Positions 12,056-64,000 of a stretch of 64,000 nt of DNA are shown piece after piece. The notes under the pieces are model-generated. The model was not told where the DNA came from, ran no database searches, and worked only from the letters and a program-made list of their open reading frames with translations. Both the position numbers and the translations under genes were made by a program. This DNA comes from Planctomycetota bacterium (GTDB lineage Bacteria > Planctomycetota > Phycisphaerae > UBA1845 > PWPN01): the NCBI GenBank assembly GCA_029550525.1, contig JAKPHF010000048.1, positions 124,001 through 188,000 of the forward strand. Direction: 5' to 3'. The first letter of the stretch is position 1, and each line of letters begins with the position of its first letter.

Positions 12056-12204
12056 CCGTACCCCTGCGAATTATCACCACAGAGAATCAGAGGCACAGAG
12101 AGAGCAATCAGAAAGAGAGTCCTGCGAGATGTCATACCGGAGTTGGGGCTCAGCTCCTTGTTGACATCGTTCTCACGGGCTATTCTTGCATTCCTCCTTT
12201 CTTT

Positions 12205-27403: not shown

Positions 27404-30400
27404 ATGTTACGTTGGCGACACAGGATCGGATCGCAACAGAAAGGGCGTCACGTGCAGTTTCACGACAACCGGTTTCACTTGTTCTGGACACCATTCCTCG
27501 CCCGACGCGGCGGGAAGACCCTCCAGGCCGTGGGCCTCGTCTGCCCGCCCGCCCTGGGTTCGGGCGGCGAACTCACCCTGCGCGTCGCAGGCAAGACGCA
27601 CAAGGCCCTCCCGTTTGATCTGCTTCGCTATCCCACCGGTCACGTGGACCAAGACGCCCCCGCGGTTTACCTCTGGCTCGTACCGAAGCCGGCTCGCCCG
27701 GTCACCTGCCGAGCCACCTGGAAAACACCGGACGGCCGGGTGCACAGCGATGCTTTGAAGCTCCGGCCGGCCGAGCCCGTCCGCGTGCACGTGGTCTCCA
27801 AGACGCACGTGGACCTGGGTTACACCGCCCGATTCGAAGAGGTCCTGACCGACTATCGAACCACGCAGTTGGACCGGCTGCTCGGTCTGCTCGAAAAGAC
27901 CGAACACAACAAGCCCGGCCGGCGGTTCGTCTGGACCATGCCGACCTGGCTGCTCGAACAGTGCCTGGACGAAGAGGCGGTTACCGCCGACCGCCGCCGC
28001 CGGCTGGCAAAGTACATCCGCAACGGCCAAGTGGTCTTCGGGCTCATGCCCTTCACGCCGCACAGCGAGTTCTTCGGCCTGGAGGAGATGTGCCGCAGCC
28101 TCTACGGCGCCCGCCGATTGGCCGAACGCTTCGGCGTGCCCGTGCCCCGAGCCGCCAAGCTCACGGACGTGCCCGCCCACACCGCCTCGATGGCCATGGC
28201 GTTCACTGCCGCCGGCGGTCAGTTCCTGCAGATCGGAACCAATCCCGATTCACAGAAGCCGCCTACGCCACAGTTGTTCTGGTGGAAGCTGCCCGATGAA
28301 AGCCGCATACTGTGTCATTATAAAGGCACGTATGGCACGACGCTGCTGCCTCCGCCCGAGTATCCGTATCGCGAGTATCTTGCCCTGCACGTCACGCACG
28401 ACAATGCGGGCCCGGGCGATCTGACCGTCATCGAGCAGATGGACTGGATCGAGCAGCACTTCGATGCCCCGGCCTTCCGCATGGGGCGCCTGGAGGATTT
28501 CGCCGACGCCTTCATCCGCACCCATGGAGCACAACTGCCGGTGATGGAAGGCGAGCCCACCGACTGGTGGATTCACGGCATCGCCAGCCAGGCCGGACCG
28601 ACCGCGCTGGCCCGTCAAGCCAAGGACCGCCTGCCTGGCGTGGAAATCATCAAGACGCTTGCGGAACTCGCATCGGGCGAGGCGAGCACCGATCGCGCCG
28701 CCATGTATCGCCTCGGCTACAAGTATCTGTCGCTGTACACCGAGCACACCTGGGGCGACCACGCCACCGACGCCGACCGGGCGTTCGGCAAACAGAACCG
28801 CTACACCGCCGACGTGGATGCACTGGCCAAGAAGAGCCGCAGCCGCGAAGGCGCGAGCATCCTCGACCGCTGGGTGCAATCCTGGCGTGACAAGACCGCC
28901 CACGCCAACGCCGCCGACGGCATCACCAACGCCCTGGAAAAAGATGTTCTTCGGAACGCGGCCGGCCGGCTCGCCTCGGGCCGTGGAAAGACCGGCATCC
29001 TGCTGTTCAACGTCGCGTCCTGGCGTCGGGGCGGACTGGTGCGCATGAGCGACGCCGACCTGCCCAAGGGCGATTTCGAACTGATCGACGCGAGCACGGG
29101 CGGCATCGTGCTCTACGAGCGGCAGGGTGGGCAGATCGAATTCCTGGCTCCGCCCGTGCCGGCGGGCGGATACCTCTATCTGGAGGTACGCCCGGTGCGC
29201 CGCCGGACCGTGCCCGGTCCCGAGGCAGACTGGAACTCAAAGCACCTCACGCTGCACTTTGAGTCCTACACGCTGCAGTTCCACACCGCCGGCGGCATGT
29301 GCCGATGGCATGACCGGGCCCGCTCGCTGCAATGGTGCTCCAACGAGGCCGAATACCCCATGGGCACGTTCCTCTACGAAATGCCCGGCGGCCGCCGCAT
29401 GCGGGAGTTCGCTCGCCGCGTGCACGGCAATGCCTGGGAGGGCACCGCCGGCTTCTTCAATCGCCACGGCTATGGCGACATGAAGGACACCGGCCTGCTG
29501 GGCGGCGGGACCGCCACCATCACGCCGGAGATCGGTCCCCTGCGCACGCGAGTCATCATCGAAGCCGCCTGCCGTGATCCCAAGGCAGCCGGACGCAAGT
29601 CGGGCAGCCCCCGCCGATACCGGACGACCTTCACCGTCTATCGCGGATGCCGCGACCTGCACGTGAACATCGAACTGCTGGACAAGCCCGCCACGTTCGC
29701 CGCCGAGGCCGGTTACGGCTTCTTCCCGTTCTACGGCAGCGAACCCTACGTCCTCATCGACCGCATCGCTCATCTCGTCGAGCCGAGCGGCGACTTCATG
29801 AAGGGCGTGAACACCGCGCATCTGGCAGTCCATCACGGCATCCGCCTGGAACTCGAGCACGCGGGCATGAACTTCTATCCGCTGCACACGCCCTTGGTCG
29901 GCTTCGGCGAGCCTGGACTGTGGCGCTATGATGATCGGCGCGAATACGAGAACGGCATCCTCTACGCAACGCTGTTCGCCAACGGCTGGGGAACCAACTT
30001 CGCCCAGTGGCAGTCCGGCAACTTCTCGTTCGACTTTGTCTGCCGCCCCACCGGCAACGACGAGTGGGACGGCGGACTCGCCCGGGGTGGACTCGAGGTG
30101 TTCCGGCCGTTGGTGGGCACGGTCGTGCAAGGCAGTGTGAATCCGCCCGCCCGCTCGCTCGTGAAGATCGAGCCCGATCTCGTGCAGCTGGTGAGCATGA
30201 AGCCGGCCGACTTCGATTCCGGCATCGTCCTGCGGTTGTGGAGTGCCGATCCCGATCCGCTCACCGCCGAGCTGTCGTTACCGTTCGCCCGCCCCGGCGA
30301 CTCGATCGAGATCTGCGATCTGCTCGAGCGCCCCACGGGAAAACGTATCCGCGTGGGCAAGAATGGAATCACCAACGTGCCCTTGCGACCGCACGGCATC

Positions 30401-50514: not shown

Positions 50515-51268
50515 GTCCACTGACGCCGGCGACCGCCTGTCCATCGCACGCCAGGTTCTCGAGCGGATGAGCCTGCGGCCGGGCTGCGCTCACGTCTGCC
50601 CGTACCTGCCCGACCGCCAGGCTCGCGATGTGGCGTTCCAGGTCCGGCGCATGCCGCCCGGGCTGTACCATTCGCTTATGGATTTGAACTTTCGGCGCAG
50701 CGGGCTGATCGTGTATCGGCCCGCCTGCGACTCCTGCAGCCAATGTCGCGCGATTCGTCTGCCCGTAGCGGAGTTTCGGCCGAACCGCAGTCAGCGACGA
50801 TGCTGGGCGGCCAACGCCGACGTCACCGTCGGGCTCTCTCCACCCCTGCCCACGCCGAGCAAGCACGAGCTCTATCGCCGCTACCTCCGGCAGCGACACG
50901 ACCGCCAGATGGACGAGTCCTGGGATGCCTTCCGCGACTTCCTCTATCGCTCGCCCGTGGACTCCCTCGAAGTGGTCTACCGCCGGCGCGACCGCCTACT
51001 AGGCGTGGGCATCCTGGATTTCGACGGCGATGCGGCCAGCACCGTCTATTGCTACTACGACCCCGACGAGCGCGGCTCGCTCGGTACGTTCAACATCCTG
51101 TGGACGATCGACTATTGCCGCCGCCTGGGCATACGTTGGGTCTACCTGGGCTACGCCATCCAGGACTGCCCCAAGATGAACTACAAGCTGCGCTTCCGTC
51201 CGCACGAAATCCTCGCCCCCGACGGCACGTGGATCCGCAGCGAACCTTCCGCGCTACAACACCCGTAG
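50513..51268 (+). CDS. bpt: Aspartate/glutamate leucyltransferase (bacterial Arg/Leu-tRNA-protein transferase)
   Basis: ACDSCSQCRAIRLPVAEFRPNRSQRR; YYDPDERGSLGTFNILWTIDY; YLGYAIQDCPKMNYK. Confidence 0.9.
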   Translation: MSTDAGDRLSIARQVLERMSLRPGCAHVCPYLPDRQARDVAFQVRRMPPGLYHSLMDLNFRRSGLIVYRPACDSCSQCRAIRLPVAEFRPNRSQRRCWAANADVTVGLSPPLPTPSKHELYRRYLRQRHDRQMDESWDAFRDFLYRSPVDSLEVVYRRRDRLLGVGILDFDGDAASTVYCYYDPDERGSLGTFNILWTIDYCRRLGIRWVYLGYAIQDCPKMNYKLRFRPHEILAPDGTWIRSEPSALQHP

Positions 51269-52219
51269 CTCAGGTATCACGCCGAGACTGCGCGCGAATG
51301 CATCGACGTGCGGCCGGGCCGCGGGCGCGGCGATGATCACCAGCTCGCCCGCTTGCGAGTCAACCGGTTGGTATGAGGAATGAACACTGCGCGGATCATT
51401 GCGGCAATCAACACCCGCCGCGGAAACATCGACGTATACCACACCCGCGGGCGTGCGCACGAAACCTTTGGCACGATAGACGTGCGGTTGCAGCTCAGTC
51501 AACGCACTGACCAGCCGCTCGCGTTCGACGTGGCATGTCACATTTACGACACGTGACTCGACGTTCGGATCCACGCATTGTGCATACTCGCCCACCAGTG
51601 AACGGTGTGGCTCGGCCCCGCCGATCTTTGCCGTAACGGCATCCGCGGCGAACACGTCGAACTCCACCCGGCAATACTGCGTGCACACCACGCGTGCCCC
51701 AGGGTTCATTTCGCGAACGCCGGCGATCGTCCGCTCGACCTGCTCGGCCGTGTATAAATCGGTCTTGTTGATCAACACCACGTCGCTGGCTTCGACCTGG
51801 GCGATGATATTCGGCAGCGTGTGCACGAGCTTGGAGAAGCTGCCGGGGTCCACCACCGTCACAATCGTCCGCAGGTCGTAAACGATATCCAGCCGCGTTT
51901 CGGCCAGCATCTGCACGATCACCTTGGGGTCGGCGATGCCGCTGGCTTCGATGAGCACGCCGTCCGGAACGGACGCATCACTGACTTGACGCAGGACGCG
52001 GATGAACTCACCCACCAGGCAACGACAGAAAATGCTCCCGCCGGGAATGCTCACCCGTTGTTCGGGAGGCAGCTCGACGAGCTCACCGTCGATGTCCACC
52101 GGCCCAAACTCGTTGATGATGCAGACGCACCGTCGCGAACGGCTCCGTTCGATCAACCCGCGCATCAACGTGGTCTTGCCGCTACCGAGAAAGCCGGTGA
52201 TGAGCGCGAGCGGAATCAT
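51254..52219 (-). CDS. CobW/COG0523 G3E-family GTPase
   Basis: GFLGSGKTTLMR P-loop; IEASGIADP; INKTDL; FCRC in place of the usual CxCC. Confidence 0.88.
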   Translation of the reverse strand: MIPLALITGFLGSGKTTLMRGLIERSRSRRCVCIINEFGPVDIDGELVELPPEQRVSIPGGSIFCRCLVGEFIRVLRQVSDASVPDGVLIEASGIADPKVIVQMLAETRLDIVYDLRTIVTVVDPGSFSKLVHTLPNIIAQVEASDVVLINKTDLYTAEQVERTIAGVREMNPGARVVCTQYCRVEFDVFAADAVTAKIGGAEPHRSLVGEYAQCVDPNVESRVVNVTCHVERERLVSALTELQPHVYRAKGFVRTPAGVVYVDVSAAGVDCRNDPRSVHSSYQPVDSQAGELVIIAAPAARPHVDAFARSLGVIPELRVL

Positions 52220-52250: not shown

Positions 52251-53618
52251 TCACTGTTTCGCTTTGATCTTTTCCTCCAGCGCCTCGATCAGCGTGGTGA
52301 TGTCGGGAATGATGGACGGGAACTTCACCTCACCGTCGATGCAGATGGTGGGAATCTGCCCCACGCCGAGTTTGGCCATGTGGCCCAGACCGCTGCGGGT
52401 CGTGATCTTGTGCTCGTTGACGACCACGCGGTCGCCAAACTTCTGCGCCGCCCGCTCCACCGCGGCCACCATGTACTGGCAGGGAGCGCACGAGGCCGAG
52501 TCCAGCGTGATGACGTCCACGATTACGCGATCTTCGTGCGAATAATCCGGCAACTGGATGTCGTCGAAAGACTCTGCCGAGTCCACCTGCGTGGCCGCCC
52601 GAGCCACGTTGCGCTGGTACTCGTCGTGCACCATGTGGGCCACCGCCTGCAGGTTGGCCTCCGGCGTGGCGTAAGGCAGATCGCAGCCGGGGGCCAGGAT
52701 GAACCCTTGCGTCCCGCCGATGTCAATGCAGCGCAACGCGTCCCGCCGAGCCGCCGCCTCGTCCCCGAGCAGGAGGACGGTGGTCAGCTTGAGGTTTCCG
52801 CCGAAGCTCTTGCCTGCCGCCCGCGCCATCTCGCCCAGCCGAGCAAGGTCGATGTTCTCATCGACCGACACGTTGTCGCATCGTGTCGCACACATATTCT
52901 CGAGGTTGCGGGTGGCGTTACCGCACACGAACAGCGATGACAGCGCGCCCTTCTCGCGAATGTGGTCGAAGACGACGTTGACCGGGGCGGTCACAAACTC
53001 CTGGAAGTGCTTGGGCGAAATCTGACTGGTCATGGGATCGACCACGGCCACCACGTCCGCCCCCTGGTCGATGTAGAAGTCCGCCGCCTTGCAGCCCACG
53101 CCCGCGCAGAAGTCCACCACTCGCTTGACCAGATCGGGATTGTTGAACATCTCCAGGAAGATGTTCGTCCCCATGAGGTGCAGGGCCAGCGTGAACGGGC
53201 CGGTGATCAGCCCGTACAGCGCGACTTCCTCGCCGATCTGCCGCTTGATCGTCTTCATCGCCTCGGCGACGACGGGATAGCGACGCTTGCCTGTGTCAAA
53301 CGACGGCAGACCGTCCAGATCCGTGCCCGACGAGAGCGGGTGCGACGTCACCGCAGGCGGCGTCTCGTCCGACCATCGCAGTTGGCAGCCCAATACCTCG
53401 GCTTCCAACTGCAGATCGAACACGATGGGCAAGCCATCGGGCCGATAGAGCTCGAAGGCTCGAGTCAGACCTCGAATGATCAGCTCGGCCGATCGCAGGT
53501 AGTTCTGCGCCGTCGCCCCGATGATCTTGCCGCCGTGCACACCCACGAACGGCACCCAGGCCGGCCGGGACGTGGACTGATTCCGCAACGCGTTCAGCAA
53601 AAGCGTCTTGCCGCTCAT
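52251..53618 (-). CDS. Uroporphyrinogen decarboxylase (URO-D/MtaA)-like methyltransferase fused to C-terminal thioredoxin-like domain
   Basis: URO-D-like N-domain; C-terminal SASCAPCQYMVAAVERAA...GVGQIPTICIDGEV thioredoxin-like fold pattern. Confidence 0.82.
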   Translation of the reverse strand: MSGKTLLLNALRNQSTSRPAWVPFVGVHGGKIIGATAQNYLRSAELIIRGLTRAFELYRPDGLPIVFDLQLEAEVLGCQLRWSDETPPAVTSHPLSSGTDLDGLPSFDTGKRRYPVVAEAMKTIKRQIGEEVALYGLITGPFTLALHLMGTNIFLEMFNNPDLVKRVVDFCAGVGCKAADFYIDQGADVVAVVDPMTSQISPKHFQEFVTAPVNVVFDHIREKGALSSLFVCGNATRNLENMCATRCDNVSVDENIDLARLGEMARAAGKSFGGNLKLTTVLLLGDEAAARRDALRCIDIGGTQGFILAPGCDLPYATPEANLQAVAHMVHDEYQRNVARAATQVDSAESFDDIQLPDYSHEDRVIVDVITLDSASCAPCQYMVAAVERAAQKFGDRVVVNEHKITTRSGLGHMAKLGVGQIPTICIDGEVKFPSIIPDITTLIEALEEKIKAKQ

Positions 53619-53773
53619 GTGGAGATTCACCTCGGTCAGTGTTCCGCGGACCCGGGGAACTATGGTACAAGGTGCAAGCGGGGATTGCGAGGACCGCCGG
53701 AGCTTCTCGGCCCGTACGCCGGCTTCGCCCGGCCCCGGTTCCCGACCCAACCCCAATGCAAGGAGATGCCTGC

Positions 53774-54219: not shown

Positions 54220-55014
54220 TCAAGCGGACCGTTCGGCCACCACGAACGTGCGGCCGCGATCGAGGAAGCTTCCCACATTCAGCACCCGCCGTTCGCGAAT
54301 CGTGAACAGCCGGCCGATAATCTCGATCACTCCCGCAAGGCCCTCGCCTTCGTGATCCGGGGCGTGCGACTCGAACAGAAACAGGCCGCCGGGCGGGAGC
54401 AGGTCGCGACACTTACGAAAATACGTTTCCAAATCCTGGCGGGTGTTGCCGTCGTACGTGTGATGGTTCGCGAACGAGAGAACCGCGTCGTACGCCTGGT
54501 CCGAGGTAAAATCCTCGAAACTGGATACGTCGAATCGCGTGTTATCCGTCCCGAGCCACATCGCCGCCTCGCACGCCATTCGCACCAGGTATGGATTGAT
54601 GTCGAAGCCGGTCACTTCGCGGGCCACGTCCGCGACGGACAGCCCGAGAAACCCGCTGTTGCAGCCGATCTCCAACACCCGCCGTCCGGCGAGCTTCTCC
54701 CGCAGGCCCATCGCGGCGACGCGGGCGGCTGTATCTCGAAGGCCGCTCACGCCGATCTGCGGAAAGGACTGGTAGAAGTACCCTTCGCCGTAGTCGTAGC
54801 TGCTCCACTCCCGGGCGGAGGCGACAAGCTGCTCGTTCAACGCTCGATGTAACGGCAGCAGTTCCGGGTGTCGGCCCAGGTTGAGGTAGTCGTGGTACCG
54901 GTTCAGCATCGACGCTCGGCGCAGGGAGGTCGGCGCCCGCCAAGCCGCGAACAGAATCCTGGGCACCGCGTACCAGGAGAACCGCTCGTACGCTGAAAGA
55001 AACTGATCTGACAT
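54220..55014 (-). CDS. Class I SAM-dependent methyltransferase
   Basis: RVLEIGCNSGFLGLSVAD motif I; FDINPYLVRMA. Confidence 0.8.
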   Translation of the reverse strand: MSDQFLSAYERFSWYAVPRILFAAWRAPTSLRRASMLNRYHDYLNLGRHPELLPLHRALNEQLVASAREWSSYDYGEGYFYQSFPQIGVSGLRDTAARVAAMGLREKLAGRRVLEIGCNSGFLGLSVADVAREVTGFDINPYLVRMACEAAMWLGTDNTRFDVSSFEDFTSDQAYDAVLSFANHHTYDGNTRQDLETYFRKCRDLLPPGGLFLFESHAPDHEGEGLAGVIEIIGRLFTIRERRVLNVGSFLDRGRTFVVAERSA

Positions 55015-55197: not shown

Positions 55198-56559
55198 TCA
55201 CAACTCGGACGCGATCTTCTCGAGCACCTCGAGACCTTCGCGCAAGGCTTCCTCGTTGATGACCAGCGGTGGATTGATCTTGATGGCGCAGCCGCCCACT
55301 CCGACCGGCGCGAACAGCATCACGCCGCGCTGGACCGCCCGCAGCACCATTTGCCAGGCCGTCTCAGGATCGGGCGTGGTCGTGCCCGGCTGCGTGAACT
55401 GCACGCAGCCCACCAGGCCGACCGCATCGTAGTGGCCGATCTTTCCGCGGCTGGCGGCGGTGATGCGCTTCACACCGTCGGCGAGGATAGGAGCGAGCTT
55501 CTGAACGTTGTCGATCAACTTCTCCTTGCGGATGGCCTGGAGATTGGCCAGCGCCGCCGCACAGCAGACCGTGTTGGCCGAGTGCGTGCTGGTCATCTCG
55601 CCCGGACCGTACATGCTCATCAGCTCGTCCGTACCCAGCACGGCCGACAACGGCATACCGCCGGCGATCCCCTTGCCGCACGCCGCGAGATCCGGCACGA
55701 CGCCCAGGTGCGAGAAACCGAACGGCGCCCCCGTACGGCCGAAGCCCGCTTGCACCTCGTCGAAGATCATGACCACCTTGTGCGCGTCGCACCACCGGCG
55801 CAGGGCCTGGGCATAGGCCGCGGGCATGAGCGTGGCGTTGCAGCCCTGGTACGTCTCGGACATCACACCGCACACCTGCTCGGGCTTGATGCCCTTGGCC
55901 ACCAGCGTCGCCTCGAACACCGAGAAGCTCGTGTCCTTCTGCCGGAAGCCGTCGGGGAACGGAACCTGCACGAAATCCGGGTTGTCGCCGAGCCAGTTCT
56001 TCAGCGCCGCCGATCCTCCCGCCAGTTGCGCGCCCATGGTGCGCCCGTGAAACGCGTTATCGAACGTGACCAAGACCCTCTTGCTCGGACCGCCCACCTT
56101 CAGCCCGTACGTGCGAGCCAGCTTGATGCAGCACTCGGTCGCCTCCGAGCCGGTGGTCAGCAGGAACACCCGCTTGAGCGGAGCCGGCAACCACGACGAG
56201 AGCTCTTCGATGAGCTTCAAGCGGATCTCGGTCGGGAAACAGTAGGCGTGATACAGGCCTTGGTCCGCCATGCCGCGAATCGCCCCGATCACGTCCGGAT
56301 GGTTGTGGCCCACGCTCGTGACCAACACGCCAGCGCTGAAGTCGATCCACCGGTTGCCCCAGCGATCGCTGACCGTCGCGCCCTGGCCGCTGTGCCAAAT
56401 GACCGGCGGCTGGCCGCCCATGCTGCGGGGCTCGAGTGCGCGAAGCTTCTCGAGCAAGGGCACACTCTCCGGAACGGGGATCGGTGTGCTGATCCTGCGA
56501 TAACGGGTTTCGATGAGCTCGACCTTTTCGGGTACGAGTGGGAATTCCTTCGTTGCCAT
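55198..56559 (-). CDS. Class III PLP-dependent aminotransferase (GabT-like)
   Basis: FSAGVLVTSVGHNHPDV; MIFDEVQAGFGRTG; GKGIAGGMPLSAVLG. Confidence 0.9.
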   Translation of the reverse strand: MATKEFPLVPEKVELIETRYRRISTPIPVPESVPLLEKLRALEPRSMGGQPPVIWHSGQGATVSDRWGNRWIDFSAGVLVTSVGHNHPDVIGAIRGMADQGLYHAYCFPTEIRLKLIEELSSWLPAPLKRVFLLTTGSEATECCIKLARTYGLKVGGPSKRVLVTFDNAFHGRTMGAQLAGGSAALKNWLGDNPDFVQVPFPDGFRQKDTSFSVFEATLVAKGIKPEQVCGVMSETYQGCNATLMPAAYAQALRRWCDAHKVVMIFDEVQAGFGRTGAPFGFSHLGVVPDLAACGKGIAGGMPLSAVLGTDELMSMYGPGEMTSTHSANTVCCAAALANLQAIRKEKLIDNVQKLAPILADGVKRITAASRGKIGHYDAVGLVGCVQFTQPGTTTPDPETAWQMVLRAVQRGVMLFAPVGVGGCAIKINPPLVINEEALREGLEVLEKIASEL

Positions 56560-56626: not shown

Positions 56627-57337
56627 TCAGTCCGCGCCATGCGTCGCCGATGCTCGCCGCTTCCCCTTCGCCATCCTGCCGTACCGCTTGATGGAGTCCA
56701 GGTGCCGATCGAGCACACGGCAGGCGGTCCCCACGTCTTCGGCTTCGATCGCCGCCAGCAGCCGCTCGTGATGCCGCAGGGCCCGAGCCTCCTCCCCTTC
56801 CTGCTGCGACGTGTACACCGCGGAAAAGCGGTGATAGTCGTAGATGGCCTCGAAGGCAGTCGCCAGTACGGCATTGCCGCTCGCTCGCACGAGTGACTGG
56901 TGGAACGTCAGATCCAGCTCCAAGAACGCCGGCAGATCATCGACGGCCGACGCCATCCGTTGCAGCAGGCCGCGCAGCGCGCGCAGGTCGCGCGGCGCGA
57001 TCCGTCCCACCGCCTGTCGCAACGCCGCCAGCTCGATGGCCTTACGGGCGACGATAATGTCATCGAGATCCACCCGTTTGAAGTCGGGCGGCAAGAACGT
57101 CTGCGGTAACTCGGTGTGTGTGACCCCTCGCACGTACACGCCCGAGTTAGCCTTGATTTGCACCACGCCCAGTTCTTCGAGCATGCTCAAGGCCTTGCGC
57201 AGCGTGCCGCGGGCAACGTGGAATTCTTCGCACAGCACCCGCTCGGCGGGCAGCCGCCGACCAACTGCGTACGTTCCCGACGCCACGCGAGCGATGATCT
57301 CGCGAACGATCAAGTTGTGCAGATGATCGCGCTGCAT
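56627..57337 (-). CDS. GntR-family (FadR-type) transcriptional regulator
   Basis: Winged HTH RRLPAERVLCEEFHVARGTLRKALSMLEELGVVQI plus FCD-like helical domain. Confidence 0.9.
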   Translation of the reverse strand: MQRDHLHNLIVREIIARVASGTYAVGRRLPAERVLCEEFHVARGTLRKALSMLEELGVVQIKANSGVYVRGVTHTELPQTFLPPDFKRVDLDDIIVARKAIELAALRQAVGRIAPRDLRALRGLLQRMASAVDDLPAFLELDLTFHQSLVRASGNAVLATAFEAIYDYHRFSAVYTSQQEGEEARALRHHERLLAAIEAEDVGTACRVLDRHLDSIKRYGRMAKGKRRASATHGAD

Positions 57338-57476: not shown

Positions 57477-57495
57477 TGGTACACAGAGTGTACCA
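57477..57495. promoter_or_regulatory. Perfect palindrome, candidate GntR/FadR-type operator
   Basis: TGGTACAC-AGA-GTGTACCA, 140 bp upstream of the GntR gene start. Confidence 0.5.
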
Positions 57496-57510: not shown

Positions 57511-58905
57511 TCAAGCGAGCCCGAACAGATGGGACAGCACCCGACGGCGCAGCCGGGGATGCATGAAGTGGTAAGTGACGCCCTCCGAGGGATCTTGCGG
57601 TGCGGTCGCGAGTTGCTGCGGATTGACCGCCGAACTCAGCACGTTCACCAGCAGATCGGCGCGGAGCAGTGGATCGATGAAGGCGAAAACCGCCCGGTAG
57701 AGCGTGAGGTCATCGGGCCAACTGCCGTTCAAGCGCAGATTCAGCGGCGGGTACTCGCGGCGGGCGATCACGTCGCCGGTGTCCAGCCCGGCCGACAAGT
57801 GAAAACAAGACATGGCCGGCCGGCCGCGCACCAGCGTGGACCACAACAATCCGTCAGCGCCCCGCACGTGAGGCAGATGGCCGGGGTGGACATGCAAGAA
57901 GCGTAAGCCAGGCAGGTCAATGATCCGGGCGGGCAGGATGCCGCCGCCGGTGAACAGCACGGTCGAGGGCGTGATGTCGCGCAACGCGTCCGCCAATCGC
58001 TCGTCGCGAAGATCGCGGACGACCACACGATCCGCGCGTTGGGCCCAGCGCTCATATCGCGGCGGACCGTACATGTCGTCGATCAACTCGCCCGGCCGAT
58101 CGACGATCGCCGCCAAGCCGTCGGTGATGGCACGAACCAGATTCGGATGCGCGGCACGTAGGCGTCGAGGCCAATGGTTCAGCGCCATCTCCTGCGTCTT
58201 CTCGGCATACCAACTGCGCAGCCGGCCGGGAAACCACCGCCCCACCGGCTTGTGCGAGGCCGGATGCTCGCTCAAGACCAGCAACACGAGGCGCTCAGGT
58301 CGCAAACCCGCTCGTCGCAGCGAGCTCAGGTATGCGCGAAAACACGGGCCCTCGTAGCCCAGGACGGTGACGGGCAGCGTGCGGTCGGCTGACGGAACTC
58401 GCCGCTCGCCTCTTTCGTGGGCCGCATCCCCCTCGATTTCACATGCTGGAACGGCCACCGCGCTCAACAACTGTTCGGCCTGCTCGGCCAGTTTGCCCGC
58501 TGCGATCTGTTCGCCGAAGAACGAATCCAGCGCGGTCAGCGCTGCGTTCAAAAGCTTGTATGCCAAACCCCGCCCTTCCGGTCCCATCTGCTCGGGCACG
58601 TGGGCCCATGCGAGAAGCGTGGCCACGGCCAACGTGGCGCCTTGCAAGTCCAGCGGGTTCTTCCCGCCCTTCGCTGGCTTCCAATTCTCGCCGTATCGCC
58701 TGTACAGCGTGCCAGTGAGTGCCAGCTTGCGACAGATGGCGTCCAGATATTCGCGGTGAAGCGAAGTCAGCGGACCTGGCCACGCTCGTGCCAATTCGCG
58801 GAGAACGCCGAGCGTGGCGATCCCATCATCGTCAGCGGACCCCGCGCAAGCGCCGGTCCCCACGTTTTTCAGCGCTTCCGACAACCGCGTCTCGATCGAA
58901 GTCAT
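57511..58905 (-). CDS. Formyltransferase-like protein (Fmt N-terminal fold) with N-terminal helical extension
   Basis: LHVHPGHLPHVRGADGLLWSTLVRGRPAMSCFHLSAGLDTGDVIARREYP, matching the formyl-transfer HPSLLP/GAxP region pattern. Confidence 0.7.
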   Translation of the reverse strand: MTSIETRLSEALKNVGTGACAGSADDDGIATLGVLRELARAWPGPLTSLHREYLDAICRKLALTGTLYRRYGENWKPAKGGKNPLDLQGATLAVATLLAWAHVPEQMGPEGRGLAYKLLNAALTALDSFFGEQIAAGKLAEQAEQLLSAVAVPACEIEGDAAHERGERRVPSADRTLPVTVLGYEGPCFRAYLSSLRRAGLRPERLVLLVLSEHPASHKPVGRWFPGRLRSWYAEKTQEMALNHWPRRLRAAHPNLVRAITDGLAAIVDRPGELIDDMYGPPRYERWAQRADRVVVRDLRDERLADALRDITPSTVLFTGGGILPARIIDLPGLRFLHVHPGHLPHVRGADGLLWSTLVRGRPAMSCFHLSAGLDTGDVIARREYPPLNLRLNGSWPDDLTLYRAVFAFIDPLLRADLLVNVLSSAVNPQQLATAPQDPSEGVTYHFMHPRLRRRVLSHLFGLA

Positions 58906-58906
58906 C

Positions 58907-60118
58907 TCACCGACCATCCTGCTCGCCTTCTGTCTCCTGGCGCCTGTCTTCTGTCTCCTGCCCTCCAGCAATCTCCGCAATCGCTCGTGCCCCCACCCGT
59001 CCGCTCTCGCTCACGTTGTACACCGTTTCGGCCCGAACTCGCTGAATACGGGCCCGTATTCCCTCACCGTCGCGCATCAACGCTTCCAGATGCATCGGCA
59101 GATCGGCCAGACGGTCCGGAGATATCACCCGGCCGACTTGCTCGCGAATCGAGACCTCCAGCGGTTCGCAACTGATCCGTTCGTACTCGGGGTTGTTGAC
59201 CTTGCGCGGCACGTCCACGAACAGCACCGGTCGCTCGTACGCGAATGCGAACTCCAGCGCCGCTCCCGACCAGTCGCTGATCATCACGTCCGCGGACTCG
59301 AGTGAATCGAATGCCGCCACGCCCGTCTCCAGCGTCAGTCGATCCTCCCCGCCGAACCCACGCTCGATCTCGCGGATGCACTCAGGCCACTTGCGTCGCG
59401 TCATGGGGTGCGGCCGCACCGTCACCCGCAGCCCCGACGACAGCAGTACCCGGCATAGCTCGACGCCGCGTGTCTCCAGGAGTCCGTGCGGCCCCCACGA
59501 CGGCGCGACCAGCACATGGGCCGGCGCCGAACGATTCGGTGCTGCCGACGAGCCGGCGCGACGCGAGGCGAGCATGGTATCAAGACGGCCGTAGCCGCAT
59601 GGGATCAGCTTCTTCGGGGCAAGTCCATAGGTTTGTTCCGTGGCTCGAATTTCCCGCTCGTGATGCGGGCCCACGCACAGGATCGTGTCGAACGCGTCGA
59701 ACGCCGCTTTTCGATAGATCATGTGCGTGCTGACCATGGAATGAAACACGTAGACGTAGTGCACGTTCTGCGCCTGCGATCGCTTGAGATGGAACGTCTG
59801 CAGGTCGGGCATCGTCATGACGCACACGCCAGCCCGCAGCGACAGGAACAGCGACGTACGAACGAGACCCTCGCCGATGCAAAAAGGTCGGATGCGTGGA
59901 TTGGAAGTCCGCAGCACCGGATCGCTTCGGCTCGACGTGAGATAGCAAACCTCGCGGCCCATTTCGCCGGTCAGCTCGCGCACGATCGGCTCGAAATGCG
60001 GCCAGGAATCGCCGTCCTCGGCATAAAACACAATCGACCGCGCCGCGTCAGGCAAGGCTTGAAACCGCCGAGCGCTGGCCCAGTCTTCCAGCAATGATTG
60101 ACCAGGAAAGCGAAACAT
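58907..60118 (-). CDS. CDP-glycerol glycerophosphotransferase (TagB/TagF-like) family protein
   Basis: VHYVYVFHSMVSTHMIYRKAAFDAFDTILCVGPHH; ADVMISDWSGAALEFAFAYERPVLFVDVP. Confidence 0.82.
   Translation of the reverse strand: MFRFPGQSLLEDWASARRFQALPDAARSIVFYAEDGDSWPHFEPIVRELTGEMGREVCYLTSSRSDPVLRTSNPRIRPFCIGEGLVRTSLFLSLRAGVCVMTMPDLQTFHLKRSQAQNVHYVYVFHSMVSTHMIYRKAAFDAFDTILCVGPHHEREIRATEQTYGLAPKKLIPCGYGRLDTMLASRRAGSSAAPNRSAPAHVLVAPSWGPHGLLETRGVELCRVLLSSGLRVTVRPHPMTRRKWPECIREIERGFGGEDRLTLETGVAAFDSLESADVMISDWSGAALEFAFAYERPVLFVDVPRKVNNPEYERISCEPLEVSIREQVGRVISPDRLADLPMHLEALMRDGEGIRARIQRVRAETVYNVSESGRVGARAIAEIAGGQETEDRRQETEGEQDGR
58918..58972. repeat. 7-nt periodic repeat (CTTCTGT CTCCTGG CGCCTGT CTTCTGT CTCCTGC) inside a CDS 3' end
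   Basis: Heptamer units read directly; overlaps last codons of 58907..60118. Confidence 0.8.
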
Positions 60119-60121
60119 GTT

Positions 60122-60195
60122 GAGCGACGAATGACGAAACCAGAATGACGCATGAATGAGAGTGCGAGTTCATGCTCGGCATTAGGCATTCGTCA
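60122..60195. repeat. 7-nt periodic repeat (GAATGAC GAAACCA GAATGAC GCATGAA)
   Basis: Heptamer units read directly. Confidence 0.6.
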
Positions 60196-60982
60196 TGGCT
60201 GGTGCGAAGTCCAGGCAACACAGCTCGTCCAATGTGCCGTCGTGCCGCATCCGCTCGTACATCTGCAGATCGCTGACGCTGTCCACCTCCAGCCAGCCTC
60301 CGTCCACGGGCACGGCCCGCACGGGCCAGTCATGGTCGACGAGGTGCTGCAGGAAGCTGGTCATGAACATGCGGTGCTTCGGCTTGCCGTCGTAGAGCCG
60401 AGCGTCGTCCAATCCGCGATAGATGGCCGGGAGCATGCGGGCGAATTCGGCCCGAGCCAGGATGAGCCCCATGTACTGGGCCTCGATCTCGTCGATCGAC
60501 TTCGGTTTGCCACCGATCTCGACGATGTTGCCCCCGGCGTCCAACCGCAACGTCTCGGCATCCGTGAGCGGATCCTCTTGCCGAGCCCGCCACAACCGCA
60601 GCCACTGCCGGTCCACGGTCGTGCACAACGGCCGACGGCAACCGCACAGCGCCTCCACGATCCGCGGCTCGTAGACGATGTCGGCGTACGCGATGAGCAC
60701 ATCATCCGTGCCGTCGAGCAGATCCGCCGCACACATCAGGCTGGCCACCATGTTGGTGGACGCATAGTTCGGATTATGACGCATGGGCCGGCCGTACGAA
60801 GCAAGCGCTTCGGCTCGATAGCCGGTCACCAGCGTGACGTCCTCGATGCCCGCCGCCGCCAGCGCGTCGAGCTGGTACTGCAGCAGCGGACGACCCGCCA
60901 GTTCAACCAGGCACTTGGGCCGATCGTTGGTGAACGGCCGAAGCCGCGTACCCTCTCCGGCCGCCAGAATAATCGCTCTCAC
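60182..60982 (-). CDS. Sugar-nucleotidyltransferase/cytidylyltransferase-like protein (Cj1416-like phosphoglutamine cytidylyltransferase candidate)
   Basis: MRAIILAAGEGTRLRPFTNDRPKCLVEL; between GATase-like and TagF-like genes; 4-bp overlap with upstream gene. Confidence 0.85.
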   Translation of the reverse strand: MRAIILAAGEGTRLRPFTNDRPKCLVELAGRPLLQYQLDALAAAGIEDVTLVTGYRAEALASYGRPMRHNPNYASTNMVASLMCAADLLDGTDDVLIAYADIVYEPRIVEALCGCRRPLCTTVDRQWLRLWRARQEDPLTDAETLRLDAGGNIVEIGGKPKSIDEIEAQYMGLILARAEFARMLPAIYRGLDDARLYDGKPKHRMFMTSFLQHLVDHDWPVRAVPVDGGWLEVDSVSDLQMYERMRHDGTLDELCCLDFAPAMTNA

Positions 60983-61629
60983 GCGTGCCCGCCTCCGAAC
61001 AAGGTGCGAAGAATGACCACGTCGCGCTCGTCACGGCTGCCGCCCGGACGGATCGGTCGCTCCGGGTGCCACATAATCGCCCAGATGGGCAACGTCCGAT
61101 GGACTACCGCCTCGACCCCGCCGTCCGGAGCCATTCCCGCCACCACCAGTTCCCCCGGCAAATGCTCCGCCCGCGCGACGAACCGGTGAAAACTGTTGAC
61201 CTCGGCCCGGGGCAGCGTCGGCATGTTGGACGGACGCGGGATGATCGGGTGCGGCACGCGCACGTGACCTTCGGTCGCAGCCAGCCGTCCGCCGAAATGA
61301 CGCACCACGAATTGCATGCCCCGGCAGACGCCCAGCACGGGCAGCCGCCGCTCGATGCAGTGTTCGAGCAACTCGCGCTCGAACGCGTCGCGCTGCGGCG
61401 CGACACCCGTCGCCCCCGGCACGTCGGCCAGGTCGTTGCCTCCCGTGAAGATCACGCCGTCCAGACCCAATGCTCCGACGAGTCGCCCGGCGTGACCCGG
61501 CTGATTCGGCAGCGGCACGGGGACGAACCCTGCGTGCAACACGACCTGAGCCCAGGCTTGATCGAGAGCATCCCGTCGCTCGTCGCGATCGGCAAGCACA
61601 TCGACACGCTGCGTCAGGCCGATTTTCAT
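60979..61629 (-). CDS. Class I glutamine amidotransferase-like hydrolase (Cj1417-like gamma-glutamyl-CDP-amidate hydrolase candidate)
   Basis: MKIGLTQRVDVLADRDERRDALDQAW; FTGGNDLADV; LGVCRGMQF nucleophile; IMWHPER. Confidence 0.85.
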   Translation of the reverse strand: MKIGLTQRVDVLADRDERRDALDQAWAQVVLHAGFVPVPLPNQPGHAGRLVGALGLDGVIFTGGNDLADVPGATGVAPQRDAFERELLEHCIERRLPVLGVCRGMQFVVRHFGGRLAATEGHVRVPHPIIPRPSNMPTLPRAEVNSFHRFVARAEHLPGELVVAGMAPDGGVEAVVHRTLPIWAIMWHPERPIRPGGSRDERDVVILRTLFGGGHA

Positions 61630-61641
61630 GAGGGCTCGTAC

Positions 61642-64000
61642 CTACCGTATTTTGCGGATCTGGCCGCTCGCACAGTCCAGCTCGACCATTTCAGCCGTGC
61701 TGGTCTGCTCGTACAATCGCTCGCCTACGCCGATCGCCGCCGGCAACTGAAATTCGGCCGCGCGAATCGCCATATGCGAGTTGGCACCCCCATACATCGT
61801 CACCAGTCCGGCAATCGGGTGAGAGAAAATCCAATCGAAGCCGGGATCCGCGTTCGGCGTGACCACCAACTTGCCGGCCAGATCGACGTCCGGCCGGCTC
61901 TTGTTCGACAGGCACACCACCTCGGCCTGCACCTTGCGCGACGTGATGAAGTTGGGCTGTGCCCGCAACTGCTGGAAACAGACGATGTCCAGTTCCGAGC
62001 GAATCTGCCCCGGCAAGCAAACCGCCTGCGTCAGTGCTGCCTGTTCGCGGCCTTCAGCCGCCCATCGTTCGAGCCGCCGCGTCACGTTCTCGCATGACGC
62101 GCTGCGAAGCGACAGCAGATCGGTAATCCGGATCTGGGCCAGATCATCGCGAGTCAAAAAGTGGGCTGCGCCAAAGTCGGCGATGGCCTCGAGCGCCGCG
62201 CTCAGATTGCGCGTGAACACGAATTTGGCATACTCTCGCCCCTCGATGGCCCGACGGCAGAAGTGCTCGAAGCCGTCCGCGTCCACGCCGAGATTCAGCC
62301 TGGCCAACTCGGCATTGACAGCGCTGCGGGTCGTCGCGTCCCAGACCTCCTCACGCGCCGCAGGCGTCTCCGCATTTCGTGCCCCGGCCACGATCGGCCG
62401 CAAGTAAGCCTCGGCCATGCTCGCGTAGTTGGGCGACGTGATGTCATACGTGCCGGGGCGCAGGTGCCCATATCGCTCGACGAACGCATCCCATTCCAGC
62501 TCACCGCGGGCGACCGCCGCCGCATCCTCCTGGAGACGGCTCGAGACCGTCCGCACGCTCGCGAGAAACGCGTCCTTCTGCGCCGCCGAGATGATCCCTG
62601 CGTCAACCAGCGAGCGCAGCAGACTCACTGCCACGAAGCCGTTCCGCGCCAGGTGCGCGAACGCCAGCACGCTGCTCAACCGCGCGTCTTCCAGCCATAG
62701 GAATGCCTTCTCCAGCGGCGGCAACTGCGCGGCGCGGATCGTTTCGAACCGCCGCTGCGCATCGGCCAGCACGGCCCAATCGCGCTCGCAGCGGGCGATC
62801 CCGCCGCGGGTAATGCCGATGAGCGCCGAGCGAAGTCGGCGAATCTCCTCCTCGCTGAAGCGGGCCTGCCGCAGCCGGTCGGCCTTGGCATCGAAATCGA
62901 ACGTCATGCAGGTGAACAGGACGTCGAATTCGACCTTGTCGTGCAGTTCGGGATTGCACGAAAGGTGATCGAGGTAATGCTCGAGCAGCCGCTCGGCCAG
63001 CGCGTCCGGCAATGCCGCCGGAATGAACGAGTTGAACGTCGCCCTTACGTCGATGTACGGATGCCCCAGTATATCGACCAGCAACTGGCAGGGCCGCACG
63101 TCGCGGTAGCCGTACTCGCTGCGCTGGCGGGCCCACGTTTCGTCGGTGATGAGGTAACGATACAACGAGAACGCCAGCCGCGAAGGCTTGGTGCCCACGA
63201 TCTCGGCCGGGTTCCAGTCGGTCATCACGCTCAACTGTGTCGATCGCCCCAGCAGATGCGGTCGCGGCCGCTGTAGCTCGCGGAAGAAGCGAATCGCGTC
63301 CCGCACCGCATCCGTGAACCGTTGATCGTCCACGGGATGGTCGGGATGCGCGACAGCGATGGGCCGAACCTGCAGGACATGTGCCGTGCCGTCGTCGGTG
63401 AAGGCGAACTCGATGTCGAGCGAGTCGTGTCCGACCAGTTGCTCGATTTCCTGCACGACGGCGATCAGCCGGTAGAACTCGCCGGGCAACCCCGGCCGCA
63501 GCATCATGCCGCGCTTCAGGAAGAGCGTGCGGACAGCCGAGCTTTCGCCCGACGTCACGGTGTCTGTGCGGCTCGTCGTGTTGTCGTAGTTGATGACGTA
63601 GTACGGGGCTCCCAGCGTGGGCGTGCGGGTCATGACCACGCCGCTCATGGTCACGTTCCGCAGCATCTCCTGCACGAGCACCTGGTTCTGCTCGTCGGGC
63701 TCGCCGTAAGACGCCAGCACGCGCTCGATGGCTTCGGCCAGTCGAGGCGTGTCGCTGGCCGGCACGTCGAGCACGCTCGTGTACGCTCCGGCCGACGACT
63801 GCCGCCAACTGTCCTCGCTCAGTGCGCTGCTGCGGACGATGACGTTGGCGTCCGCAAACGCTTGTTCGATCCGATCGAGCACGGCGGGACGGTTGCGTTG
63901 CCACTCGCCATGCGTGAACGAGACCGATTCGCCAATGTGCCCGATCTGCACGAGCGGGCGCAGCCGTTCCAGCGACTCGGCCTTCGTGCCCAGCACGAAT
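61642..64000 (-). CDS. PEP synthase-like protein (PEP/pyruvate-binding and mobile His domains; Cj1418-like L-glutamine kinase candidate), truncated by or starting near window edge
   Basis: VIVRSSALSEDSWRQSSAGAYTSVLDV nucleotide-binding N-domain; GGANSHMAIRAAEFQLPAAIGVG mobile His domain at C-terminus. Confidence 0.82.
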   Translation of the reverse strand, partial: FVLGTKAESLERLRPLVQIGHIGESVSFTHGEWQRNRPAVLDRIEQAFADANVIVRSSALSEDSWRQSSAGAYTSVLDVPASDTPRLAEAIERVLASYGEPDEQNQVLVQEMLRNVTMSGVVMTRTPTLGAPYYVINYDNTTSRTDTVTSGESSAVRTLFLKRGMMLRPGLPGEFYRLIAVVQEIEQLVGHDSLDIEFAFTDDGTAHVLQVRPIAVAHPDHPVDDQRFTDAVRDAIRFFRELQRPRPHLLGRSTQLSVMTDWNPAEIVGTKPSRLAFSLYRYLITDETWARQRSEYGYRDVRPCQLLVDILGHPYIDVRATFNSFIPAALPDALAERLLEHYLDHLSCNPELHDKVEFDVLFTCMTFDFDAKADRLRQARFSEEEIRRLRSALIGITRGGIARCERDWAVLADAQRRFETIRAAQLPPLEKAFLWLEDARLSSVLAFAHLARNGFVAVSLLRSLVDAGIISAAQKDAFLASVRTVSSRLQEDAAAVARGELEWDAFVERYGHLRPGTYDITSPNYASMAEAYLRPIVAGARNAETPAAREEVWDATTRSAVNAELARLNLGVDADGFEHFCRRAIEGREYAKFVFTRNLSAALEAIADFGAAHFLTRDDLAQIRITDLLSLRSASCENVTRRLERWAAEGREQAALTQAVCLPGQIRSELDIVCFQQLRAQPNFITSRKVQAEVVCLSNKSRPDVDLAGKLVVTPNADPGFDWIFSHPIAGLVTMYGGANSHMAIRAAEFQLPAAIGVGERLYEQTSTAEMVELDCASGQIRKIR

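What the first reader, a model, noticed from the sequence alone, without database searches (positions are those of the whole stretch)
57511..60118. TagF-like transferase and formyltransferase-like gene coupled to the diphosphoramidate cassette
Downstream in the same direction are a CDP-glycerol glycerophosphotransferase-family protein and, 1 nt later, a formyltransferase-like protein with an N-terminal helical extension. Neither is part of the described Campylobacter pathway. TagB/F-like enzymes use CDP-activated donors, so one hypothesis is transfer of the phosphoramidate group from the CDP intermediate to a surface polymer or small molecule, with formylation of an amine. This would be a different end product from MeOPN.
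Basis: inference. Interest (0 to 1): 0.72.

Follow-up and report, generated by a model that had tools for sequence, protein, structure and literature searches.

The report
TagF-type branch for phosphoramidate transfer
A planctomycete carries the first three genes of the Campylobacter pathway for a rare phosphorus-nitrogen surface group, followed by a teichoic-acid-type transferase, an unusual formyltransferase-like protein and a methyltransferase; the same set recurs in four other genomes, so this looks like a second, undescribed way to finish and attach that group.

Summary
The TagF-like gene (60118-58907) and formyltransferase-like gene (58905-57511) lie on the minus strand, 1 nt apart, behind a glutamine kinase/hydrolase/cytidylyltransferase core homologous to Cj1418/1417/1416. 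The link to the core is real. The same set recurs in four other genomes, two of them planctomycetes. The formyltransferase clade is found only in genomes with this core plus TagF (5 of 5), and in none of 7 other kinase genomes tested. These loci lack the Cj1415-like CDP-amidate kinase and UbiE-type methyltransferase found in six other kinase loci. Where TagF relatives outside the cassette have recognisable donor genes, these are mostly phosphonate genes with a cytidylyltransferase (14 loci), not teichoic-acid genes. I therefore read TagF as transferring the phosphoramidate group directly from CDP-amidate to an unknown acceptor. 'Formylation' is weaker: the catalytic Asn of formyltransferases is His in all five proteins. 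'Not MeOPN' cannot be claimed, because a dedicated methyltransferase is present. Verdict: a new variant of a known pathway; chemistry unproven.

The parts
61642..64000 (-). L-glutamine kinase homologue (Cj1418-like), cut by the window end; the full gene is 1058 aa with an extra N-terminal nucleotidyltransferase-like domain (L002:10819-7643)
   Evidence: NF004508 883 bits vs cut-off 501; catalytic-type motif GGANSHMAIRA; full ORF; N-terminal domain similar to the NTase, E 9e-17
60979..61629 (-). gamma-glutamyl-CDP-amidate hydrolase homologue (Cj1417-like, peptidase C26 / class I GATase)
   Evidence: NF045546 E 3e-33, 115 bits, below its cut-off 250; Cys (GVCRG) and His/Glu (WHPE) present
60182..60982 (-). 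CTP:phosphoglutamine cytidylyltransferase homologue (Cj1416-like, MobA-like NTP transferase)
   Evidence: PF12804 E 2e-20; best PDB relative is CTP:phosphocholine cytidylyltransferase 1jyk
58907..60118 (-). TagF-like CDP-dependent phosphotransferase, proposed CDP-phosphoramidate:acceptor transferase
   Evidence: fold match to TagF and TarL; H126, R235-x-H237, S284, E289 invariant in 36 sequences; conserved next to the core
57511..58905 (-). formyltransferase-like protein: helical N-terminal domain (about residues 1-170) plus formyltransferase core with HVH in place of NxH
   Evidence: strong matches only in genomes with core plus TagF
54220..55014 (-). cassette-specific SAM-dependent methyltransferase
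   Evidence: 45-57% identical homologues in all four other TagF-type amidate genomes; found in 2 of 294 phylum genomes, both with the cassette
56627..57337 (-). GntR/FCD regulator between the formyltransferase-like and methyltransferase genes; probably an insertion, not part of the conserved set
   Evidence: PF00392 and PF07729; no homologue found in the other amidate loci
55198..56559 (-). class III aminotransferase, probably the partner of the GntR regulator; not part of the conserved set
   Evidence: PF00202 E 1.5e-81; no homologue found in the other amidate loci

Best explanation
The locus is an alternative finishing branch of the nucleoside diphosphoramidate pathway. The core makes CDP-amidate from L-glutamine: kinase to N-phospho-glutamine, CTP cytidylyltransferase to CDP-glutamine, hydrolase to CDP-NH2 (inferred from homology to the characterised Campylobacter enzymes). 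In Campylobacter CDP-amidate is then 3'-phosphorylated by the Cj1415 kinase. Here that kinase is missing from the locus, and a TagF-type GT-B transferase takes CDP-amidate directly: a hydroxyl of an acceptor attacks the amidate phosphorus, CMP leaves, and an H2N-PO2- group is attached, as TagF does with glycerol phosphate (inferred). A dedicated methyltransferase and a formyltransferase-fold protein with a changed catalytic residue act on the group or its acceptor (inferred). The likely destination is a cell-surface glycan or lipid, but the acceptor is not known.
For: Recurrence: GlnK-Hyd-NTase-TagF-FT in G103, with the FT split over two contigs and the methyltransferase beside it; Hyd-NTase-TagF-FT(N)-FT(core)-methyltransferase on one strand in L064, whose kinase is split over L064/L109; L068, with its FT on another contig; L100. 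Specificity: FT and methyltransferase in 5 of 5 genomes with core plus TagF, in 0 of 7 other GlnK genomes, and in 294 phylum genomes only in the two that have the cassette. Replacement: six other GlnK loci carry an APS-kinase (Cj1415-like) gene and a UbiE-type methyltransferase; none of the TagF-type loci does. Donor class: in 14 of 33 loci outside the cassette, TagF relatives lie with PEP mutase, decarboxylase or Fe-ADH genes, mostly with a PF01467 cytidylyltransferase fused to PEP mutase, a Fom1-type architecture known to make CMP-hydroxyethylphosphonate (PMC6697681). Fold and catalytic residues. Convergence: amidate-associated TagFs have at least three places in the TagF tree, and the L100 kinase groups with the other type, yet L100 has the same FT and methyltransferase.
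Against: No biochemistry. The window TagF alone is below Pfam's cut-off, and the hydrolase is below NCBI's equivalog cut-off (115 of 250 bits). No acceptor gene is conserved; surface-glycan genes lie nearby only in some loci. Only five genomes show the set, all in many contigs. L100 holds only a partial TagF. Absence of the APS-kinase homologue was tested in the loci, not in the whole genomes. 16 of the 33 other TagF loci have no recognised donor genes.
Confidence: 0.66

Rival explanations
1. The end product is methyl phosphoramidate after all, as in Campylobacter: the TagF-like enzyme and the new methyltransferase are non-homologous or distant replacements for the Campylobacter transferases and methyltransferase, and the formyltransferase-like protein is accessory.
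For: Each of the five genomes has its own methyltransferase with the set, and the other GlnK loci have a different one beside the core. Campylobacter phosphoramidate exists with and without the methyl group (PMC9561416).
Against: The Cj1415-like kinase is missing from these loci, and the strict presence of the formyltransferase-like protein is unexplained.
Confidence: 0.35
2. TagF builds a glycerol-phosphate or other CDP-polyol polymer and merely sits next to the amidate genes.
For: Best fold match is TagF with CDP-glycerol.
Against: None of the annotated neighbours in the cassette loci is a CDP-glycerol or teichoic-acid gene; relatives with recognisable donor genes sit mostly in phosphonate loci; the neighbourhood is conserved in three planctomycete genomes and joined with a second kinase lineage in L100.
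Confidence: 0.1
3. The formyltransferase-like protein really formylates, using N10-formyl-THF: either an amino group on the acceptor or the phosphoramidate nitrogen.
For: Formyltransferase fold; His and Asp of the catalytic triad kept; in the L068 genome the gene lies among ORFs that read as NDP-sugar and glycosyltransferase genes (my reading of ORF sequences, not a family search).
Against: The Asn of the triad is His in all five cassette proteins, whereas five other formyltransferase-fold proteins found by the same searches keep Asn.
Confidence: 0.4

Closest known systems
Campylobacter jejuni O-methyl phosphoramidate (MeOPN) pathway, Cj1415-Cj1418 with transferases Cj1421/Cj1422
   Same: Homologous glutamine kinase, CDP-amidate hydrolase and cytidylyltransferase; a methyltransferase is present
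   Different: No Cj1415-like CDP-amidate kinase in the loci; TagF-like transferase; a methyltransferase of another family than the UbiE-type one beside the other GlnK loci; formyltransferase-like protein. Homology of TagF to Cj1421/Cj1422 could not be tested
TagF / TarL CDP-glycerol and CDP-ribitol phosphotransferases (PF04464)
   Same: GT-B fold, invariant His and R-x-H-P motif, cytidine-activated donor implied by neighbours
   Different: Compact about 400-residue protein; no teichoic-acid genes seen nearby; neighbours make phosphoramidate or phosphonate donors
Fom1-type CMP-phosphonate biosynthesis clusters (cytidylyltransferase fused to PEP mutase)
   Same: Relatives of this TagF sit in such clusters in many loci
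   Different: Carbon-phosphorus instead of phosphorus-nitrogen donor; this formyltransferase and methyltransferase were not matched in those loci
N10-formyl-THF formyltransferases (Fmt, ArnA, WbkC, PseJ; PF00551)
   Same: Fold; His and Asp of the catalytic triad
   Different: Asn replaced by His in all five proteins; extra N-terminal helical domain in the planctomycete proteins

Membership tests
MeOPN / nucleoside diphosphoramidate pathway of Campylobacter | L-glutamine kinase homologue | tested here: met
   NF004508 883 bits vs cut-off 501; the model is named 'hypothetical protein', so the glutamine kinase name rests on recalled Cj1418 homology and on the hydrolase next door
MeOPN / nucleoside diphosphoramidate pathway of Campylobacter | gamma-glutamyl-CDP-amidate hydrolase | tested here: inconclusive
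   NF045546 E 3e-33 but 115 bits against cut-off 250; catalytic residues present
MeOPN / nucleoside diphosphoramidate pathway of Campylobacter | cytidylyltransferase for phosphoglutamine | tested here: inconclusive
   PF12804, LicC-like; overlaps the hydrolase gene. Family fits; substrate not tested
MeOPN / nucleoside diphosphoramidate pathway of Campylobacter | CDP-amidate kinase (Cj1415, APS-kinase-like) | tested here: not met
   None found in the five TagF-type loci (L100 contig short, L064 split); present in six other GlnK loci
MeOPN / nucleoside diphosphoramidate pathway of Campylobacter | MeOPN transferases Cj1421/Cj1422 | not testable with these tools
   No Campylobacter sequence was available in the searches used
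CDP-glycerol/ribitol phosphotransferase family PF04464 (TagF) | fold | tested here: met
   best PDB match 3l7k TagF + CDP-glycerol, E 8e-12, TM about 0.55
CDP-glycerol/ribitol phosphotransferase family PF04464 (TagF) | curated sequence cut-off | tested here: inconclusive
   window protein 16.3 of 22.1 bits; 34 of 36 family members match at E 0.01 or better, best 3.7e-15
CDP-glycerol/ribitol phosphotransferase family PF04464 (TagF) | catalytic His and R-x-H-P motif | tested here: met
   H126, R235, H237 invariant in 36 sequences; alignment to TarL covers the R-x-H-P and S-D-x-S parts
CDP-glycerol/ribitol phosphotransferase family PF04464 (TagF) | teichoic-acid donor and locus | tested here: not met
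   no teichoic-acid genes among the annotated cassette neighbours; recognisable donor genes are for amidate or phosphonate
formyl-THF formyltransferase (PF00551) | Asn-x-His ... Asp catalytic triad | tested here: not met
   HVH in all five proteins, Asn in five other formyltransferase-fold proteins; Asp kept
formyl-THF formyltransferase (PF00551) | fold | tested here: met
   Foldseek matches to Fmt, WbkC, ArnA; model confidence moderate in the core, poor in the N-terminal domain

The most novel reading that the evidence does not exclude
This TagF-like family is a general transferase for unusual cytidine-activated phosphorus groups (phosphoramidate, phosphonates, and a third, unknown group made by a pyruvate-kinase-like and an ATP-sulfurylase-like enzyme), and the planctomycete branch makes a phosphoramidate carrying both a methyl and a formyl-type modification on a surface glycan or lipid.
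Probability: 0.3. Interest if true: 0.78.

Novelty: new variant of a known kind. Interest (0 to 1): 0.6.

Why it matters
Phosphorus-nitrogen groups made from glutamine are described in the reviews read here as specific to Campylobacter. Here the same core appears in planctomycetes and unclassified bacteria with a different, recurring finishing set. If right, it gives a candidate transferase that acts on CDP-amidate itself, links phosphoramidate and phosphonate surface chemistry through one transferase family, and offers a formyltransferase-fold enzyme with a changed catalytic residue to test.

Tried and rejected
Plasmid search with TagF: no match. PDB sequence search with the single TagF: nothing relevant. 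Four literature searches for TagF/phosphonate or phosphoramidate clusters outside Campylobacter found no description of this set in an open-access library; key Raushel papers are not held. Considered and rejected: chance adjacency of the two genes (recurs in other genomes); L064 FT as a frameshifted pseudogene (the two ORFs are the N-terminal domain and the core as separate genes); GntR and aminotransferase as cassette members (no homologue found in the other four sets; own palindrome and promoter-like site). A kinase search in another phylum could not be run as planned ('of' needs a G handle).

Full report
OBSERVATION. The TagF-like gene ends with TGA at 58909-58907 and the formyltransferase-like gene starts with ATG at 58905. 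The kinase, hydrolase and cytidylyltransferase genes upstream are on the same strand; gaps are 12, -4, 63 and 1 nt. Pfam supports the TagF call weakly for the window protein alone and better across the family (34 of 36 members). A confident AlphaFold model matches TagF with CDP-glycerol best. The second protein has the formyltransferase fold with a helical N-terminal extension.

SURROUNDINGS. The kinase gene runs past the window end and has a fused N-terminal domain that resembles the cytidylyltransferase. Further upstream on the same strand lie a DUF1570 gene, a methyltransferase, a GNAT of the PF13480 type and a polysaccharide deacetylase, and an ORF that reads as a GT4 glycosyltransferase (my reading). 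Downstream come a GntR/FCD regulator, a class III aminotransferase and a methyltransferase.

RECURRENCE. A search of 294 phylum genomes found close TagF relatives in few genomes: G103 has GlnK-Hyd-NTase-TagF-FT, with the FT continuing on a second contig next to the methyltransferase. A scan of 84,980 species genomes gave 37 TagF loci. L064, L066 (the same contig as in G103), L068 and L100 carry the amidate core with TagF; L064, L068 and L100 also carry the methyltransferase on the same contig. The L068 genome has the FT on another contig. Loci come from Planctomycetota (L064, L066) and unclassified bacteria (L068, L100). The window genome is in the same class as G057, whose contig is a Sedimentisphaerales MAG, so it is probably a planctomycete of the class Phycisphaerae.

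SPECIFICITY. Strong FT and methyltransferase matches occur in all five genomes with core plus TagF and in none of seven other GlnK genomes tested. As arithmetic, 5 of 5 against 0 of 7 is one arrangement in 792, but relatedness and incomplete MAGs make this nominal. In 294 phylum genomes the methyltransferase was found only in the window genome and G103; strong FT matches likewise. In the six TagF genomes without GlnK that were tested with both profiles, and in G057 for the methyltransferase, neither gave a strong match; one weak FT-profile match (E 1e-12) is generic.

TWO TYPES. Six other GlnK loci (L053, L054, L056, L057, L058, L108) have an APS-kinase homologue, as expected for Cj1415, and a UbiE-type methyltransferase; the TagF-type loci have neither. 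In three of these six (L053, L054, L108) the hydrolase was not detected at that threshold. L055 ends at its contig end and cannot be typed. I read the TagF-type set as taking CDP-amidate directly, without 3'-phosphorylation; this is inference. L100 has a kinase grouping with the other type and a TagF on another branch, so the set seems to have been assembled more than once. Amidate-associated TagFs need at least three changes on the TagF tree. Long branches and a partial L100 TagF limit this.

DONOR CLASS. Of the 33 TagF loci outside the amidate cassette, 14 carry phosphonate genes (PEP mutase, phosphonopyruvate decarboxylase-like, iron alcohol dehydrogenase, cytidylyltransferase), 3 carry pyruvate-kinase-like and ATP-sulfurylase-like genes, and 16 have no recognised donor genes, many on short contigs. 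In L083, PF01467 is fused to PEP mutase, the Fom1 architecture reported to make CMP-hydroxyethylphosphonate (PMC6697681). This supports a cytidine-activated, non-glycerol donor.

FORMYLTRANSFERASE. Profile alignment to Fmt and PseJ puts His where they have the catalytic Asn. All five cassette proteins read HVH, while five other formyltransferase-fold proteins found by the same searches keep Asn. Whether it formylates is open.

KNOWN AND UNKNOWN. Four searches of an open-access library found no description of this set. Reviews describe the kinase and the modification as specific to Campylobacter. Shown: gene order, recurrence, fold, residues, absence of the Cj1415-like gene in the loci. Inferred: CDP-amidate as donor, direct transfer, surface acceptor, methyl or formyl on the product.

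Noticed in passing
L067:9995-13675, L071:7917-11179, L086 (about 9959-12200 and on): TagF relatives next to an ATP-sulfurylase-like and a pyruvate-kinase-like gene in two Myxococcia MAGs and a Woesearchaeota archaeon: a third recurring context, possibly another activated phosphorus group.
   Followed up: partly
window 57477-57495: Perfect 19-bp palindrome TGGTACAC-n3-GTGTACCA between the FT stop and the GntR start, next to a promoter-like TTGACA/TACACT site (57514-57487); looks like the GntR/FCD operator. A second site with 2 mismatches is at 52615. GntR and the aminotransferase may be a separate unit.
   Followed up: partly
L068:12174-19377, L109:3428-4549, L067:7450-9117, L059:5192-6388: PF00884-type sulfatase-like proteins recur near amidate and phosphonate TagF loci; none found in the window, L002 or L003.
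   Followed up: partly
window 52251-53756 and 51254-52219: URO-D-type protein with a C-terminal thioredoxin-fold region, followed by a CobW-like gene on the same strand.
   Followed up: no
window 29121-29215: ARAGORN calls a tRNA with a four-base anticodon (gccg) and no assigned amino acid; may be an artefact.
   Followed up: no
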